DNA of 64,000 nt from contig NZ_JAEMNW010000001.1 in assembly GCF_016481275.1 (NCBI RefSeq), positions 558,001 through 622,000 of the forward strand, in the 5' to 3' direction. The notes under the pieces are model-generated. The model saw only the letters and a program-made list of their open reading frames with translations, did not search any database and had not been told where the DNA came from. The stretch's first letter is position 1; the number at the start of each line of letters is the position of its first letter. A program made the translations under genes and the position numbers. This DNA is from Antrihabitans auranticaus (GTDB taxonomy: Bacteria; Actinomycetota; Actinomycetes; Mycobacteriales; Mycobacteriaceae). Below, piece after piece: positions 54,340 through 57,783 of the stretch.

Positions 54340-55629
54340 ATGGCATGGGATTTCGAGACGGATCCGGAATTTCAGGAACTGCTCGACTGGGCTGACGAAT
54401 TCGTCCGCACCGAGGTCGAGCCGCTGGACTACGTGTTCGCGAACCCATACGACCGGTCCGACGCGGAGGCGATGGCCTACACCCGCCCCTTGAAACAGCG
54501 AGTGAAGGACAAGGGGCTGTGGGCGTGCCACCTCGGGCCCGAGTTGGGCGGCCAAGGTTTCGGTCAGCTCAAACTCGGTTTGCTGAACGAGATCCTGGGC
54601 CGGTCGTTCTGGGCGCCGTCGATCTTCGGCTGCCAAGCTCCGGACTCGGGAAACAGCGAGATCCTCGCGCACTACGGCACTGCCGAGCAGAAGGCTCGCT
54701 ACCTGCAGCCGTTGCTCGACGGCGATATCGGCTCCTGCTACTCGATGACCGAACCGCACGCCGGATCCGACCCGACGCTCTTCACCACCAGCGCCGTCCG
54801 CGATGGCGATTCGTGGGTCATCAACGGTGAGAAGTGGTTCAACTCCGTCGCGGCGTTCGCCGAGTTCTTCATCGTCATGGCCGTCACCAATCCGGATGTC
54901 AGCGCTTACCAGGGCATGTCCATGTTCATCGTGCCTGCTGGAACGCCAGGTCTCGAGATCGTCCGAAACGTGACGGTCCACGGGTTCAGCGAGCACGAAG
55001 GCTATGTCCGCTACACCGACGTCCGCGTACCGGCCGATCACCTGCTCGGCCCCGAAGGCGGCGCCTTCGTCGTCGCGCAGACCCGCCTCGGCGGAGGCCG
55101 GGTCCACCATGCGATGCGCACTGTCGCGGTGGTTCAGAAGGCATTCGACATGATGTGCGAGCGCGCGGTCTCGCGGCAGGTCCGCGGCGGGACGCTCGGA
55201 TCGTTAGGCATGACGCAGGAGCGAATCGCCGACAGCTGGATCGAGATGGAGCAGTTCCGGCTACTCGTCCTCCGGACTGCGTGGAAGATCGACCATTACA
55301 ACGACTACCTGAAGGTGCGCAAAGACATCGCCGCTATCAAAGTTGCGATGCCGAAGGTGATGCACGACGTCGCACAACGTGCCCTGCACCTGCACGGGGC
55401 GCTGGGAGTGTCGGAAGAGATGCCGTTCGCGCAGATGATGCTGTACGCGGAGGTCATGGGGATCGCCGACGGACCGACCGAGGTCCACAAGGCGACGTTG
55501 GCCAAGCAGATTTTGCGCGACTACCAGCCCGCCCCGGGGTTGTGGCCGACCCAGCACCGCCCGGCCCTGGAACAACAGTCGCGGGCGCACGTGGCATCCC
55601 GCCTCGAGCATCTTGTGGGGAATTTGTAA
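54340..55629 (+). CDS. Acyl-CoA dehydrogenase
   Basis: 429 residues. FAD-site segments CYSMTEPHAGSDPT and WVINGEKWFNS and the C-terminal domain with LGGGRVHHAMR and HGALGVSEEMPFAQM mark the family; the long N-terminal form resembles FadE-type enzymes acting on bulky or branched acyl-CoAs. The usual catalytic Glu position is filled by the GPTEVHKA segment (YAEVMGIADGPTEV), where the family has its base. GGAGG at 7 bases before ATG 54340. Last gene of the operon; the repeat array follows directly. Confidence 0.93.
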   Translation: MAWDFETDPEFQELLDWADEFVRTEVEPLDYVFANPYDRSDAEAMAYTRPLKQRVKDKGLWACHLGPELGGQGFGQLKLGLLNEILGRSFWAPSIFGCQAPDSGNSEILAHYGTAEQKARYLQPLLDGDIGSCYSMTEPHAGSDPTLFTTSAVRDGDSWVINGEKWFNSVAAFAEFFIVMAVTNPDVSAYQGMSMFIVPAGTPGLEIVRNVTVHGFSEHEGYVRYTDVRVPADHLLGPEGGAFVVAQTRLGGGRVHHAMRTVAVVQKAFDMMCERAVSRQVRGGTLGSLGMTQERIADSWIEMEQFRLLVLRTAWKIDHYNDYLKVRKDIAAIKVAMPKVMHDVAQRALHLHGALGVSEEMPFAQMMLYAEVMGIADGPTEVHKATLAKQILRDYQPAPGLWPTQHRPALEQQSRAHVASRLEHLVGNL

Positions 55630-55659
55630 GGCTCTCGTCCTTGGTGCGCCCTCGCTCGC

Positions 55660-56360
55660 GAACCTTTTGCTCGTGCAGCGTGCCCCGCCGGGCGGCAGCG
55701 AACCTTTTGCTCGTGATCACCCCACCGAGCCGCGTCGTGCCCAACCATTTGCTCGTGATCACCCCACCCCACGGCGGCAACGAACAAAAGGCTCGGCCAC
55801 ACGGCGTGTCACGAACCCGATGCTCGTGATCACCCCACCCCGCCGGCGGCAACGAACAAAAGGCTCGCCCACACGGCGCGTCACGAACCCGTTGCTCGTG
55901 ATCACCACGCCGAGCCGCGTCATACCCAACCATTTGCTCGTGCCCGCCGCGTCGTGCCCAACCATTTGCTCGTGATCACCCACCCCGCCGCGCCGTGCCC
56001 AACCATTTGCTCGTGCTCACCCCACCCCGCCGGCGGCAACGAACAAAAGGCTCCCGCACACGGCGCGTCACGAACCCGATGCTCGTGATCACCCCGCCGA
56101 GCCGCGCCATACCCAACCATTTGCTCGTGATCACCCCACCCCGCGGGCGGCAACGAACAAAAGGCTCCCGCACACGGCGCGTCACGAACCCGTTGCTCGT
56201 GATCACCACGCCCGCCCTGCCGTGCCCAACCATTTGCTCGTGATCACCACGCTCGCCGCGCCATGCCCAACCATTTGCTCGTGCTCACCCCACCCCACGC
56301 GGCGGCAACGAACAAAAGGCTCCCGCACACGGCGCGTCACGAACCCTTTGCTCGTGATCA
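55660..56360. repeat. Array of 14 TGCTCGTG-core repeats with two unit lengths
   Basis: About 700 non-coding bases. TGCTCGTG starts at 55668, 55708, 55750, 55821, 55893, 55935, 55967, 56008, 56080, 56122, 56194, 56235, 56276 and 56349. Spacings are about 41 bp (short unit) or about 72 bp (long unit), with one 32-bp truncated unit. In most copies the core extends to GCTCGTGATCACC, which contains the palindrome GTGATCAC. The short unit continues through a GAGCCGCG-type stretch to CCCAACCATT; the long unit adds GGCGGCAACGAACAAAAGGCTC and a CACACGGCGCGTCACGAACCC stretch. AACAAAAGGCTC is an imperfect inverse of the AACCTTTTGCTCG form at the array ends. No ORF here is credible. Confidence 0.93.
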
Positions 56361-56598
56361 CGCCGGAAGGCCGCCTTCAGAGCACGCCCACTCAGTGAGC
56401 ACGCACAGTGAACGTGTGTGCGTTGGGCCGTCGACACGCCCGGGCATGACGCAGGATCGTGTGCACGGTCCGACTTCGGTCGCCGACACGAGAACCGCGC
56501 GAACCAGAATCCCCTGTTCACAGCGTCGTAAATCCCCCCAAATGCGTGGCGCGTGTCATCTGCCACCACATGTGTAGGCCGTATCACCCTCTGTCGGA
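56361..56598. other. Intergenic region between repeat array and desaturase promoter
   Basis: About 240 bases without a credible gene. It holds a short GAAGGC-C-GCCTTC hairpin (56366-56378) and a near-perfect GCACGCAC/GTGTGTGC inverted repeat (56399-56421). The composition is less repetitive than the array. I see no further feature. Confidence 0.5.
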
Positions 56599-56627
56599 TT
56601 GCTGTCAGGCTCCATTGCGCTTAGATT
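56599..56627 (+). promoter_or_regulatory. Promoter of the reductase-desaturase operon
   Basis: TTGCTG (56599-56604), 17 bases, TAGATT (56622-56627): a good sigma-70 type -35/-10 pair with ideal spacing. Transcription would start near 56634, inside the left arm of the operator that follows. Confidence 0.65.
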
Positions 56628-56628
56628 G

Positions 56629-56652
56629 TTCGGTGTACGCCTGTACACCGAA
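56629..56652. promoter_or_regulatory. Operator of the reductase-desaturase operon
   Basis: Perfect 10-bp arms TTCGGTGTAC and GTACACCGAA with a 4-base spacer, lying over the predicted start point of transcription, 12 bases before the start codon. Typical of a TetR-type repressor site; no regulator gene is adjacent, so the binder is encoded elsewhere. Confidence 0.85.
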
Positions 56653-56664
56653 ATGGAGTCGATT

Positions 56665-57783
56665 ATGTCAGTCAACACCCAAGTCTTGAGTTCTTCACGG
56701 CTGGCTCGGCGCGTGCTCTCTTCATCGTTCGTGAAGGCGGCCACTACTCCCCACGGCATCGATCACTATCTCGAAATGATCGACCCCCTGTGGTCGCAGA
56801 CCGAGATTCGCGCCGAGGTCACCGACGTCACCCGCAAAACTTCCGACAGCGTCACTCTGACGCTCCGGCCGAACGGCAACTGGAACGGCTTCCGGGCCGG
56901 CCAGTTCGTCCGCCTCTCCGTCGAAATCGACGGCGTCCGCCGAACCCGCTGCTACTCGCCGGCGGACTCGGAGTTCCGCCGCGACGGCCGCATCGAACTG
57001 ACCATCAAGGTCGACCCGAACGGTCTCGTGTCGCGCCACCTGCGCGAGCATGCGCGTCCCGGCACGGTCGTCCAGCTTTCCCAGGCCCAGGGTGAGTTCG
57101 TGCTGCCGTTGCCGCATCCGCGTCGCATCCTGCTGATCAGCGGCGGCTCCGGAATCACGCCGGTCATGTCGATGCTGCGCACCCTGTGCGACAAGGCATA
57201 CAACGGCAAAATCACGTTCTTGCACTACGCGTTCACCGAAGAAGACGTCATCTACAACGACGAGTTGAACGCGCTCAAGGAGAAATACGAATCGCTCCGC
57301 ATTGTGCGCGCCTACACCGATCAGCCCCTCGGTGGCGACCTCAGCGGCTTCTTCAGCCGCGAACACCTCGTCAAAGCAGAACCGCACTTTGCCGAAGCCG
57401 AAGCCTACGTCTGCGGCCCGGTGCCGTTGATGGACTCGGTGCGCGCGCTCTTCGCCGAAGAAGGGCTGGAAGATCAACTGCATCTCGAGCAGTTCGCCGC
57501 GCCCGTGCGCACCGTGAGCAGCGATGACGCCGAGGGCGAGATCAGCTTCTCCGCAAGCGGTACGTCAGTCGCGAACAGTGGGCGCACTCTGCTCGAACAA
57601 GCCGAGGACGCCGGCCTCACACCCGAGTACGGCTGCCGAATGGGCATCTGCTTCTCGTGCGTCCGCCGCAAGGACACCGGCCTGACCCGCAACGTCATGA
57701 CCGGCGACCTGTGCAGCGAAGGCGACACCAACGTCAAGATCTGCGTCTCCGTTCCAGTGGGCGACGTGTCGATCGATCTCTGA
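56665..57783 (+). CDS. Ferredoxin reductase with fused [2Fe-2S] domain, partner of the desaturase
   Basis: 372 residues. FAD domain with RCYSPAD, NAD domain with GGSGITPVMSMLR and CGPVPLMDS, then a plant-type ferredoxin domain with CRMGICFSC and a distant Cys (DLCSE). It matches M. tuberculosis Rv3230c, which passes electrons from NADPH to the DesA3 stearoyl-CoA desaturase. ATG 56665 has TGGAG at 7 bases; starts at 56653 or 56599 would lie in or before the operator. The desaturase gene follows 42 bases on. Confidence 0.93.
   Translation: MSVNTQVLSSSRLARRVLSSSFVKAATTPHGIDHYLEMIDPLWSQTEIRAEVTDVTRKTSDSVTLTLRPNGNWNGFRAGQFVRLSVEIDGVRRTRCYSPADSEFRRDGRIELTIKVDPNGLVSRHLREHARPGTVVQLSQAQGEFVLPLPHPRRILLISGGSGITPVMSMLRTLCDKAYNGKITFLHYAFTEEDVIYNDELNALKEKYESLRIVRAYTDQPLGGDLSGFFSREHLVKAEPHFAEAEAYVCGPVPLMDSVRALFAEEGLEDQLHLEQFAAPVRTVSSDDAEGEISFSASGTSVANSGRTLLEQAEDAGLTPEYGCRMGICFSCVRRKDTGLTRNVMTGDLCSEGDTNVKICVSVPVGDVSIDL

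What the first reader, a model, noticed from the sequence alone, without database searches (positions are those of the whole stretch)
55660..56360. Fourteen-copy modular repeat array with 41- and 72-bp units
The core TGCTCGTG recurs 14 times with only two spacings (about 41 and 72 bp, one 32). Long units carry an extra block (GGCGGCAACGAACAAAAGGCTC ... CACGAACCC) that contains an inverted partner of the core's AACCTTTTGCTCG form. The core overlaps the palindrome GTGATCAC. The array lies between an acyl-CoA dehydrogenase and the desaturase operon and codes for nothing. It may be an array of protein-binding sites, a chromosome-organising site, or a structured RNA; I know no named element like it.
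Basis: partly seen in the sequence, partly recalled or inferred. Interest (0 to 1): 0.75.

Follow-up and report, generated by a model that had tools for sequence, protein, structure and literature searches.

The report
Multiplied gene-end palindrome array
The array is a locally multiplied set of copies of a roughly 60-base palindromic DNA element that, in related bacteria, mostly sits singly near the ends of genes; it is probably a transcript-end element, and how and why it was multiplied here is not known.

Summary
In detail: 14 TGCTCGTG cores at 55668-56356, spacings 40-42, 71-73 and one 32. The 72-bp unit is a full 60-bp element (18-bp arm, 24-bp centre, inverted 18-bp arm) plus linker; the 41-bp unit is a half element. 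The window genome has about 66 full elements at 18 places, each array with its own variant. Similar elements lie dispersed in Antrihabitans cavernicola, two Aldersonia and Skermania, and, with other arm sequences, in further genera of the family. Of 82 dispersed places, 80 lie between genes, enriched in convergent and depleted in divergent regions. Dispersed copies mostly fold as hairpins (71 of 82 with z below -2); window-genome copies less (23 of 65), the five of this array not at all. Yet conserved columns resist variation within arrays. Best reading: a TRIT/REP-like gene-end element, locally multiplied in one lineage. Main rival: a DNA-level site array, BIME-like. No RAYT-type transposase was found in six genomes. 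New variant of a known kind.

The parts
55660..56365 (.). whole array: 14 cores, 5 full 60-bp elements and 9 half elements
55774..55833 (-). full 60-bp element 1 (arm 18, centre 24, arm 18)
   Evidence: R2, 57.8 bits
55846..55905 (-). full 60-bp element 2
   Evidence: 56.8 bits
56033..56092 (-). full 60-bp element 3
   Evidence: 54.8 bits
56147..56206 (-). full 60-bp element 4
   Evidence: 55.2 bits
56302..56361 (-). full 60-bp element 5, last of the array
   Evidence: 56.7 bits
55660..55680 (+). first, degenerate half-element arm (GAACCTTTTGCTCGTG)
   Evidence: sequence; core at 55668
55703..55720 (+). half-element arm
55745..55762 (+). half-element arm
55930..55947 (+). half-element arm
55962..55979 (+). 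half-element arm (the one 32-bp spacing)
56003..56020 (+). half-element arm
56117..56134 (+). half-element arm
56230..56247 (+). half-element arm
56271..56288 (+). half-element arm
54340..55629 (+). upstream gene, acyl-CoA dehydrogenase; stop codon 30 bp before the array
   Evidence: PF00441, PF02770, PF02771
56731..57783 (+). downstream gene, FAD/NAD oxidoreductase with a 2Fe-2S domain; its start is my gene finder's choice
   Evidence: PF00970, PF00175, PF00111

Best explanation
The array is a local multiplication of a dyad element of about 60 bp belonging to a family spread over genera of the window's family. In its usual form the element is a single copy placed shortly past a stop codon or between two convergent genes, and can make a hairpin (18-bp arms, often extended by a few inner pairs) in the transcript from either side. 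I infer that it ends transcripts from both directions or protects their 3' ends, like the mycobacterial TRIT motif or E. coli REP elements. In the window's lineage, copies grew into arrays of full and half units, most simply by slippage or unequal recombination between arms that share GTGATCAC. Hairpin strength was then relaxed in many arrays, this one among them, while arm and centre sequence stayed constrained. Shown: the geometry, the spread, the gene-end placement, the folding difference and the local homogenisation. Inferred: the function at transcript ends, and the amplification mechanism.
For: Geometry, in scans that do not impose it: in the window-genome loci 45 of 56 minus arms that have a plus arm 20-110 bp downstream have it at exactly 42 bp (67 minus arms in all); in the loci of the dispersed elements 43 of 64 (7 more at 43, 3 at 41; 112 in all); in unnamed genus g29 43 of the 47 close pairs listed (list cut short) are at 42, the others 41, 43, 43, 44. 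67 of 82 dispersed model hits are 60 bp long, the rest 58-63. Position: 80 of 82 dispersed places lie between two called genes, 1 past the last gene of a contig, 1 in a called gene, where 91% of the sequence is coding. 25 of 77 element-bearing intergenic regions are convergent against 5.1% expected by length or 7.1% by count (p 4e-14, 6e-11); 11 of 77 are divergent against 45% or 37% (p 1e-8, 1e-5). In 43 tandem cases the median distance is 26 bp to the upstream stop and 73 bp to the next start. In one g29 genome 15 of 22 are convergent, 6 tandem, 1 at an edge, 0 divergent. Folding: 71 of 82 dispersed elements have z below -2, median -4.9. Across genera, covariation exceeds all 500 shuffles on three of five measures. 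Ten element loci of A. kunmingensis are syntenic with element loci of Aldersonia NBC_00410, one of them also with Skermania. Within-array identity is 0.90, between arrays 0.70 (50 elements).
Against: The window array itself is no hairpin array, and a terminator scan finds none at 55500-56800. Within the window genome arm pairing does not covary: 81.1% of cells paired against 82.7% in shuffles. Two of five covariation measures across genera are not beyond the shuffles (63 and 18 of 500 reach them). A terminator needs neither a nearly fixed length nor a shared loop (CGACACGCCG with up to 1 mismatch in 10 of 22, 12 of 23 and 3 of 16 elements of three genomes, 0 of 21 in A. cavernicola, 1 of 22 in G345). 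Three of 17 places in the window genome and 11 of 77 regions in relatives are divergent. The places are not all independent (shared ancestry, tandem pairs). No transcript data were available.
Confidence: 0.55

Rival explanations
1. The elements are DNA sites for a sequence-specific protein (for example a topology or nucleoid protein). Each full element is two inverted sites four helical turns apart, and the arrays are high-occupancy clusters that act as DNA, like gyrase-bound BIME-2 arrays of E. coli, placed where convergent transcription piles up supercoils.
For: Within arrays, columns conserved among the other arrays vary less (37 of 286 against 62 of 194, p 6e-7; centre columns alone, not used for detection, 15 of 86 against 44 of 106, p 5e-4; 8 arrays), although pairing does not covary there. 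The two arms start 42 bp, four helical turns, apart; other arm distances such as 31, 52, 73, 83 and 104 recur (not tested statistically). An alternative arm (GCGAGACCGAAC) can sit opposite the usual one without pairing its outer part. Half elements exist that lack the partner arm.
Against: Across genera the arms and inner stem do covary on three measures and most dispersed copies fold, which plain binding sites need not do. Some distances (19, 36, 123, 165) do not fit helical turns. Lower variation at conserved columns could reflect mutation bias or exchange between arrays. No binding protein is known.
Confidence: 0.22
2. The family is a non-autonomous mobile repeat (REPIN- or MITE-like) that spreads by an unidentified recombinase, settles in tolerated gene-end sites and has no host function.
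For: Elements with the same loop motif, mostly in the same register, occur at many non-orthologous places and in several genera. Copy number differs sharply among same-genus genomes: about 66 full elements in G000, 0 matches in G001, 7 rows on both strands in G002, 44 rows in G003 (150 candidates scored per genome). Gene-end placement is also what selection against harmful insertions leaves.
Against: Y1/RAYT transposase PF01797 has no match in 6 of 6 genomes searched. I saw no target-site duplication by eye in the flanks printed. Ten loci are shared between two Aldersonia species, so turnover is slow. Exact pattern: 0 stretches in the viral contigs; the window array has no match in phage or plasmid records.
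Confidence: 0.15
3. The window array is a neutral minisatellite: an old gene-end element that expanded by slippage and now only drifts, comparable with mycobacterial MIRU-VNTR loci (recalled).
For: Array-specific variants and direct repeats of 32, 41, 72, 114 and 155 bp; weak folding.
Against: Arrays in one genome, 70% alike between arrays, keep the 42-bp arm distance, and conserved columns resist variation.
Confidence: 0.08

Closest known systems
TRIT motif of Mycobacterium tuberculosis (Gardner et al. 2011, NAR 39:5845; paper not held; content recalled; that it proposed a TRIT model is in passages of PMC3526491 read)
   Same: By recall, a conserved structured motif enriched near gene ends in a related genus; the 60-61-bp GCGAGCAGACGCAAAA... 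elements found here in genus g29 are probably this motif, an inference I could not check.
   Different: Arm sequence differs (GTGATCACGAGCAAATGG); in the window genome the units are multiplied into arrays with half units and often weak hairpins.
Myt-1 family of M. tuberculosis (PMC2267715, passages read: 72 bp, 75 members, common structure predicted)
   Same: A repeated stem-loop family of similar size and copy number in a related genus.
   Different: Its sequence is not in the passages read, so identity with the g29 element is untested, and so is its layout.
REP / BIME-2 elements of enterobacteria (PMC2817692, passages read)
   Same: Palindromic extragenic units, some in tandem clusters; the passage cites gyrase binding by BIME-2, polymerase I binding and help to Rho-dependent termination by REPs. 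Placement at gene 3' ends is recalled.
   Different: Other sequence, nearly fixed length of 60 bp, no RAYT (PF01797) in six genomes, full elements within an array all in one orientation.
Uptake-signal pairs used as terminators in Haemophilus (PMC5217627, passages read)
   Same: A fixed sequence repeated in inverted pairs at gene ends.
   Different: No link to DNA uptake was tested, and single arms outside elements were not counted properly here.

Membership tests
TRIT (mycobacterial terminator-like motif) | enriched near gene ends | tested here: met
   80 of 82 dispersed places between genes, convergent regions enriched; of 17 window-genome places 8 are tandem, 6 convergent, 3 divergent
TRIT (mycobacterial terminator-like motif) | conserved hairpin structure | tested here: inconclusive
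   mostly met for dispersed relatives, met in part of the other arrays (23 of 65 elements), not met for the window array
TRIT (mycobacterial terminator-like motif) | match to the published TRIT consensus or model | not testable with these tools
   paper not held
canonical intrinsic terminator | GC-rich stem followed by a T run | tested here: not met
   0 found in window 55500-56800
REP/BIME | short extragenic palindromic units, in part clustered | tested here: met
REP/BIME | associated RAYT transposase (PF01797) in the genome | tested here: not met
   0 of 6 genomes; the control rings in 5 of 14 known genomes
REP/BIME | binding of gyrase, IHF or polymerase I | not testable with these tools
   needs an experiment
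Myt-1 | sequence match | not testable with these tools
   sequence not in the passages read
known structured RNA (Rfam) | score above the gathering threshold | tested here: not met
   window 55000-57000: five matches, all far below gathering scores; 9 other loci: none at gathering score

The most novel reading that the evidence does not exclude
A family-wide class of nearly fixed-length (60-bp) bipartite elements at gene ends acts both as a transcript-end hairpin and as a DNA site. Each genus has its own arm sequence, implying a co-evolving sequence-specific partner, and in the window species selection shifted from the hairpin to the DNA site, giving multi-site arrays that work as chromosomal binding platforms.
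Probability: 0.15. Interest if true: 0.8.

Novelty: new variant of a known kind. Interest (0 to 1): 0.5.

Why it matters
It ties an unexplained array to a family of gene-end palindromes of nearly one length spread over several genera, and gives a case in which such elements were multiplied and in many arrays freed from hairpin pairing while keeping sequence. That makes a standing question testable: whether repeated gene-end palindromes act as RNA (transcript ends) or as DNA (sites for a protein or for supercoiling control).

Tried and rejected
Structured RNA in the array: rejected for the window array. RAYT-borne REPINs: no PF01797 in six genomes (G070 was not among them). Phage or plasmid origin: nothing; a g29 element had no plasmid match either. 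Empty-site test at the window locus: the oxidoreductase orthologues in G001 and G002 (83 and 82% identity) have no array, but G001 has a different upstream gene and similarity in G002 stops before the upstream gene, so this is no true empty site. One search was my own design error (pattern 3 bp too long, 0 of 31 genomes) and says nothing; one search replaced it. The conserved-column test is circular, because its columns come from a pattern that I derived from the arrays; I dropped it for the leave-one-array-out test. impose the 60-bp geometry, so the gapless alignments are no evidence for it; searches are. A first folding comparison (38 of 82 dispersed, median z -6.9; 50 of 65 window-genome elements, -1.9) had favoured high-scoring dispersed elements; one search repeats it on all 82 and 65 (medians -4.9 and -1.7). 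Searches scored only 18 and 13 candidates per genome on samples of 301 and 401 genomes, so genomes without a match there are not proven empty, and the weaker of the 24 positive genomes may be chance. One genome-contig hit, an Acidimicrobiales MAG (L078), looks like chance. Literature: ten searches (listings seen), passages read in PMC3526491, PMC5379054, PMC5217627, PMC6448022, PMC2267715 and PMC2817692; I saw no description of the GTGATCACGAGC element there, but most journals are not held.

Selections: 74 loci were searched for dispersed elements (161 rows on both strands); I kept one row per place, 82 places, dropping one overlapping partial hit (L129:3535). L169 was fetched and had no hit. 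The listing was cut short, so the fetched set is a subset. In G345, 22 elements with both arm words exact were examined in 20 fetched loci; one search lists 26 close pairs there. The count of about 66 full elements is 65 (weak or short rows L017:5018, L017:5101, L188:3636 and L190:3677 left out; L014:5439 and L015:5164 align over 101 bases there) plus C1:924469, which scored 150 of 8202 candidates. Array extents were set by me; some elements overlap a called gene end by up to 14 bp. Gene calls are my own simple finder's.

Full report
Observation. The array is as described: 14 TGCTCGTG cores, all on the + strand, spacings 40-42, 71-73 and one 32, from about 55660 to 56365, starting 30 bp after the stop codon of an acyl-CoA dehydrogenase and ending 365 bp before an oxidoreductase gene. 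My gene finder calls nothing between them.

Anatomy. The unit resolves into a 60-bp dyad element: an 18-bp arm, a 24-bp centre and the inverted 18-bp arm. The oriented consensus is GTGATCACGAGCAAA-GG, a centre with CGACRCGCCG, then CC-TTTTGCTCGTGATCAC (38 elements). In a scan that does not impose the distance, 67 minus arms were found in the window array and 15 fetched loci of the own genome; 56 have a plus arm 20-110 bp downstream, 45 of these at exactly 42 bp. The 72-bp unit is a full element plus a linker of about 12 bp; the 41- and 32-bp units are half elements. In the window array there are 5 full and 9 half elements; the full ones all lie on the minus strand in the orientation set by the centre.

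Genome. The own genome (6.51 Mb) holds 56 hits of the core 15-mer with up to one mismatch against 0 for the reversed control, and about 66 full elements at 18 places. Copies within an array are 90% identical, copies of different arrays 70% (126 and 1099 pairs of 50 elements): each array grew locally. Of the 17 places with fetched flanks, 8 are tandem, 6 convergent and 3 divergent.

Relatives. An exact pattern of the 60-bp geometry over the genome collection gave 29 stretches, 28 of them in Aldersonia kunmingensis, Aldersonia sp. NBC_00410, Skermania sp. ID1734 and Antrihabitans cavernicola, and one in an Acidimicrobiales MAG that I take for chance (near relatives of the window genome may be left out). 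There the elements are dispersed, single or in twos. A structure model (R2) finds 44, 49, 61 and 51 rows, both strands counted, in G003, G021, G028 and G070, 7 in G002 and none in G001. In a sample of 401 family genomes 24 have a match at E up to 0.001, in 10 of 31 genera, many of them weak. Arms differ by genus: GCGAGCAGACGCAAAA in g29, GTGATCACGGCCG in g6, and a 65-bp TGATCACGAGGAACTGG form in g22. In g29, 12 of 21 genomes carry the arm word, and 43 of the 47 close pairs listed are at 42 bp (list cut short).

Position. In 74 fetched loci of four genomes, 82 element places were examined: 43 tandem, 26 convergent, 11 divergent, 1 past the last gene of a contig, 1 inside a called gene. By intergenic region, 25 of 77 are convergent against 5.1% expected by length and 7.1% by count (p 4e-14, 6e-11), and 11 of 77 divergent against 45% and 37% (p 1e-8, 1e-5). 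Tandem copies lie at a median 26 bp from the upstream stop; 31 of 43 are nearer the stop than the next start. In one g29 genome (G345), 15 of 22 are convergent, 6 tandem, 1 edge, 0 divergent.

Structure. Across genera, pairing of arms and inner stem covaries: the covariation score, percentage paired and doubly changed cells exceed all 500 shuffles, but further pair types (18 of 500 shuffles reach it) and pairs with double changes (63 of 500) do so less or not; the tool warns that relatedness inflates such counts. Within the window genome arm pairing does not covary and is no better than shuffled (81.1% against 82.7%). Folded against shuffles, 71 of 82 dispersed elements have z below -2 (median -4.9), and 23 of 65 window-genome elements (median -1.7). 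The arrays differ: medians of -3.3 to -4.0 in L013, L016 and L017, -0.5 in L009 and -0.6 in the window array, whose five elements lie between -1.7 and +0.5 (-2.2 to +0.5). The array as one RNA has z -1.44.

Constraint without pairing. Within arrays, columns conserved among the other arrays vary less than the rest (37 of 286 against 62 of 194, p 6e-7), and this holds for the centre alone, which was not used to detect elements (15 of 86 against 44 of 106, p 5e-4; 8 arrays). Mutation bias or exchange between arrays could also cause this. The loop motif CGACACGCCG, with up to one mismatch, occurs mostly in one register in 10 of 22, 12 of 23 and 3 of 16 elements of A. kunmingensis, Aldersonia NBC_00410 and Skermania, in 0 of 21 of A. 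cavernicola and 1 of 22 of G345; shuffled loops give about 0.05-0.15 per set.

History. Ten element loci of A. kunmingensis are syntenic with element loci of the second Aldersonia, one also with Skermania, so single elements persist. Among the fetched loci no window-genome array shares two or more genes with an A. cavernicola element locus. The Y1/RAYT transposase family is absent from six genomes. The 60-bp pattern has no exact match in the viral contigs, and the array has no match in the phage or plasmid records.

Reading. The most likely account is a gene-end dyad element of the family, akin in placement and shape to the TRIT motif (recalled) and REP elements, acting on transcript ends from both sides, that multiplied locally in the window lineage. 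The relaxed pairing with kept sequence leaves room for a DNA-level role, which is the main rival. Function and amplification mechanism are inference; no expression or binding data were available.

Noticed in passing
L130:3568, L148:3546, L150:3627, L184:3502 and 5190, L014:5439 (window genome C19:86k): A second arm type, GCGAGACCGAACAA (or one base off), replaces one arm of the element in Aldersonia, Skermania and once in the window genome, often opposite the usual arm without pairing its outer part.
   Followed up: partly
L091-L098 (genus g22, G281 and G294): A 65-bp relative, TGATCACGAGGAACTGGTGGCGG with inverted partner, occurs several times in two 9.4-Mb genomes; in L095 two identical copies with identical near flanks lie 209 bp apart.
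   Followed up: no
L109 and L110 (G089 contig C2, 174,582 bases): Two identical 48-bp palindromes ACGAGAGAAGAGCCCCGATC... with identical near flanks on one contig, probably a different repeat.
   Followed up: no
L150:3569-3686, L144:3592-3709, L131:3595-3743: Two elements in tandem, in two cases overlapping by two bases at the junction, in Aldersonia: possible first steps of an array.
   Followed up: partly
L010:2260-3155, L009:6840-7050, L187:3563-3622: Three element places of the window genome lie between divergent genes, where a transcript-end role is hard to see; L010 is the longest array by the extents I set.
   Followed up: no
output (window, L009-L017): Distances between successive arms such as 10, 31, 42, 52, 73, 83 and 104 bp lie close to whole helical turns, others (19, 36, 123, 165) do not; not tested statistically.
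   Followed up: no
loci of the dispersed elements: 48 of 112 minus-strand arm matches have no plus arm 20-110 bp downstream; some are echoes of the palindromic arm end, the rest were not sorted out and could be lone arms.
   Followed up: no
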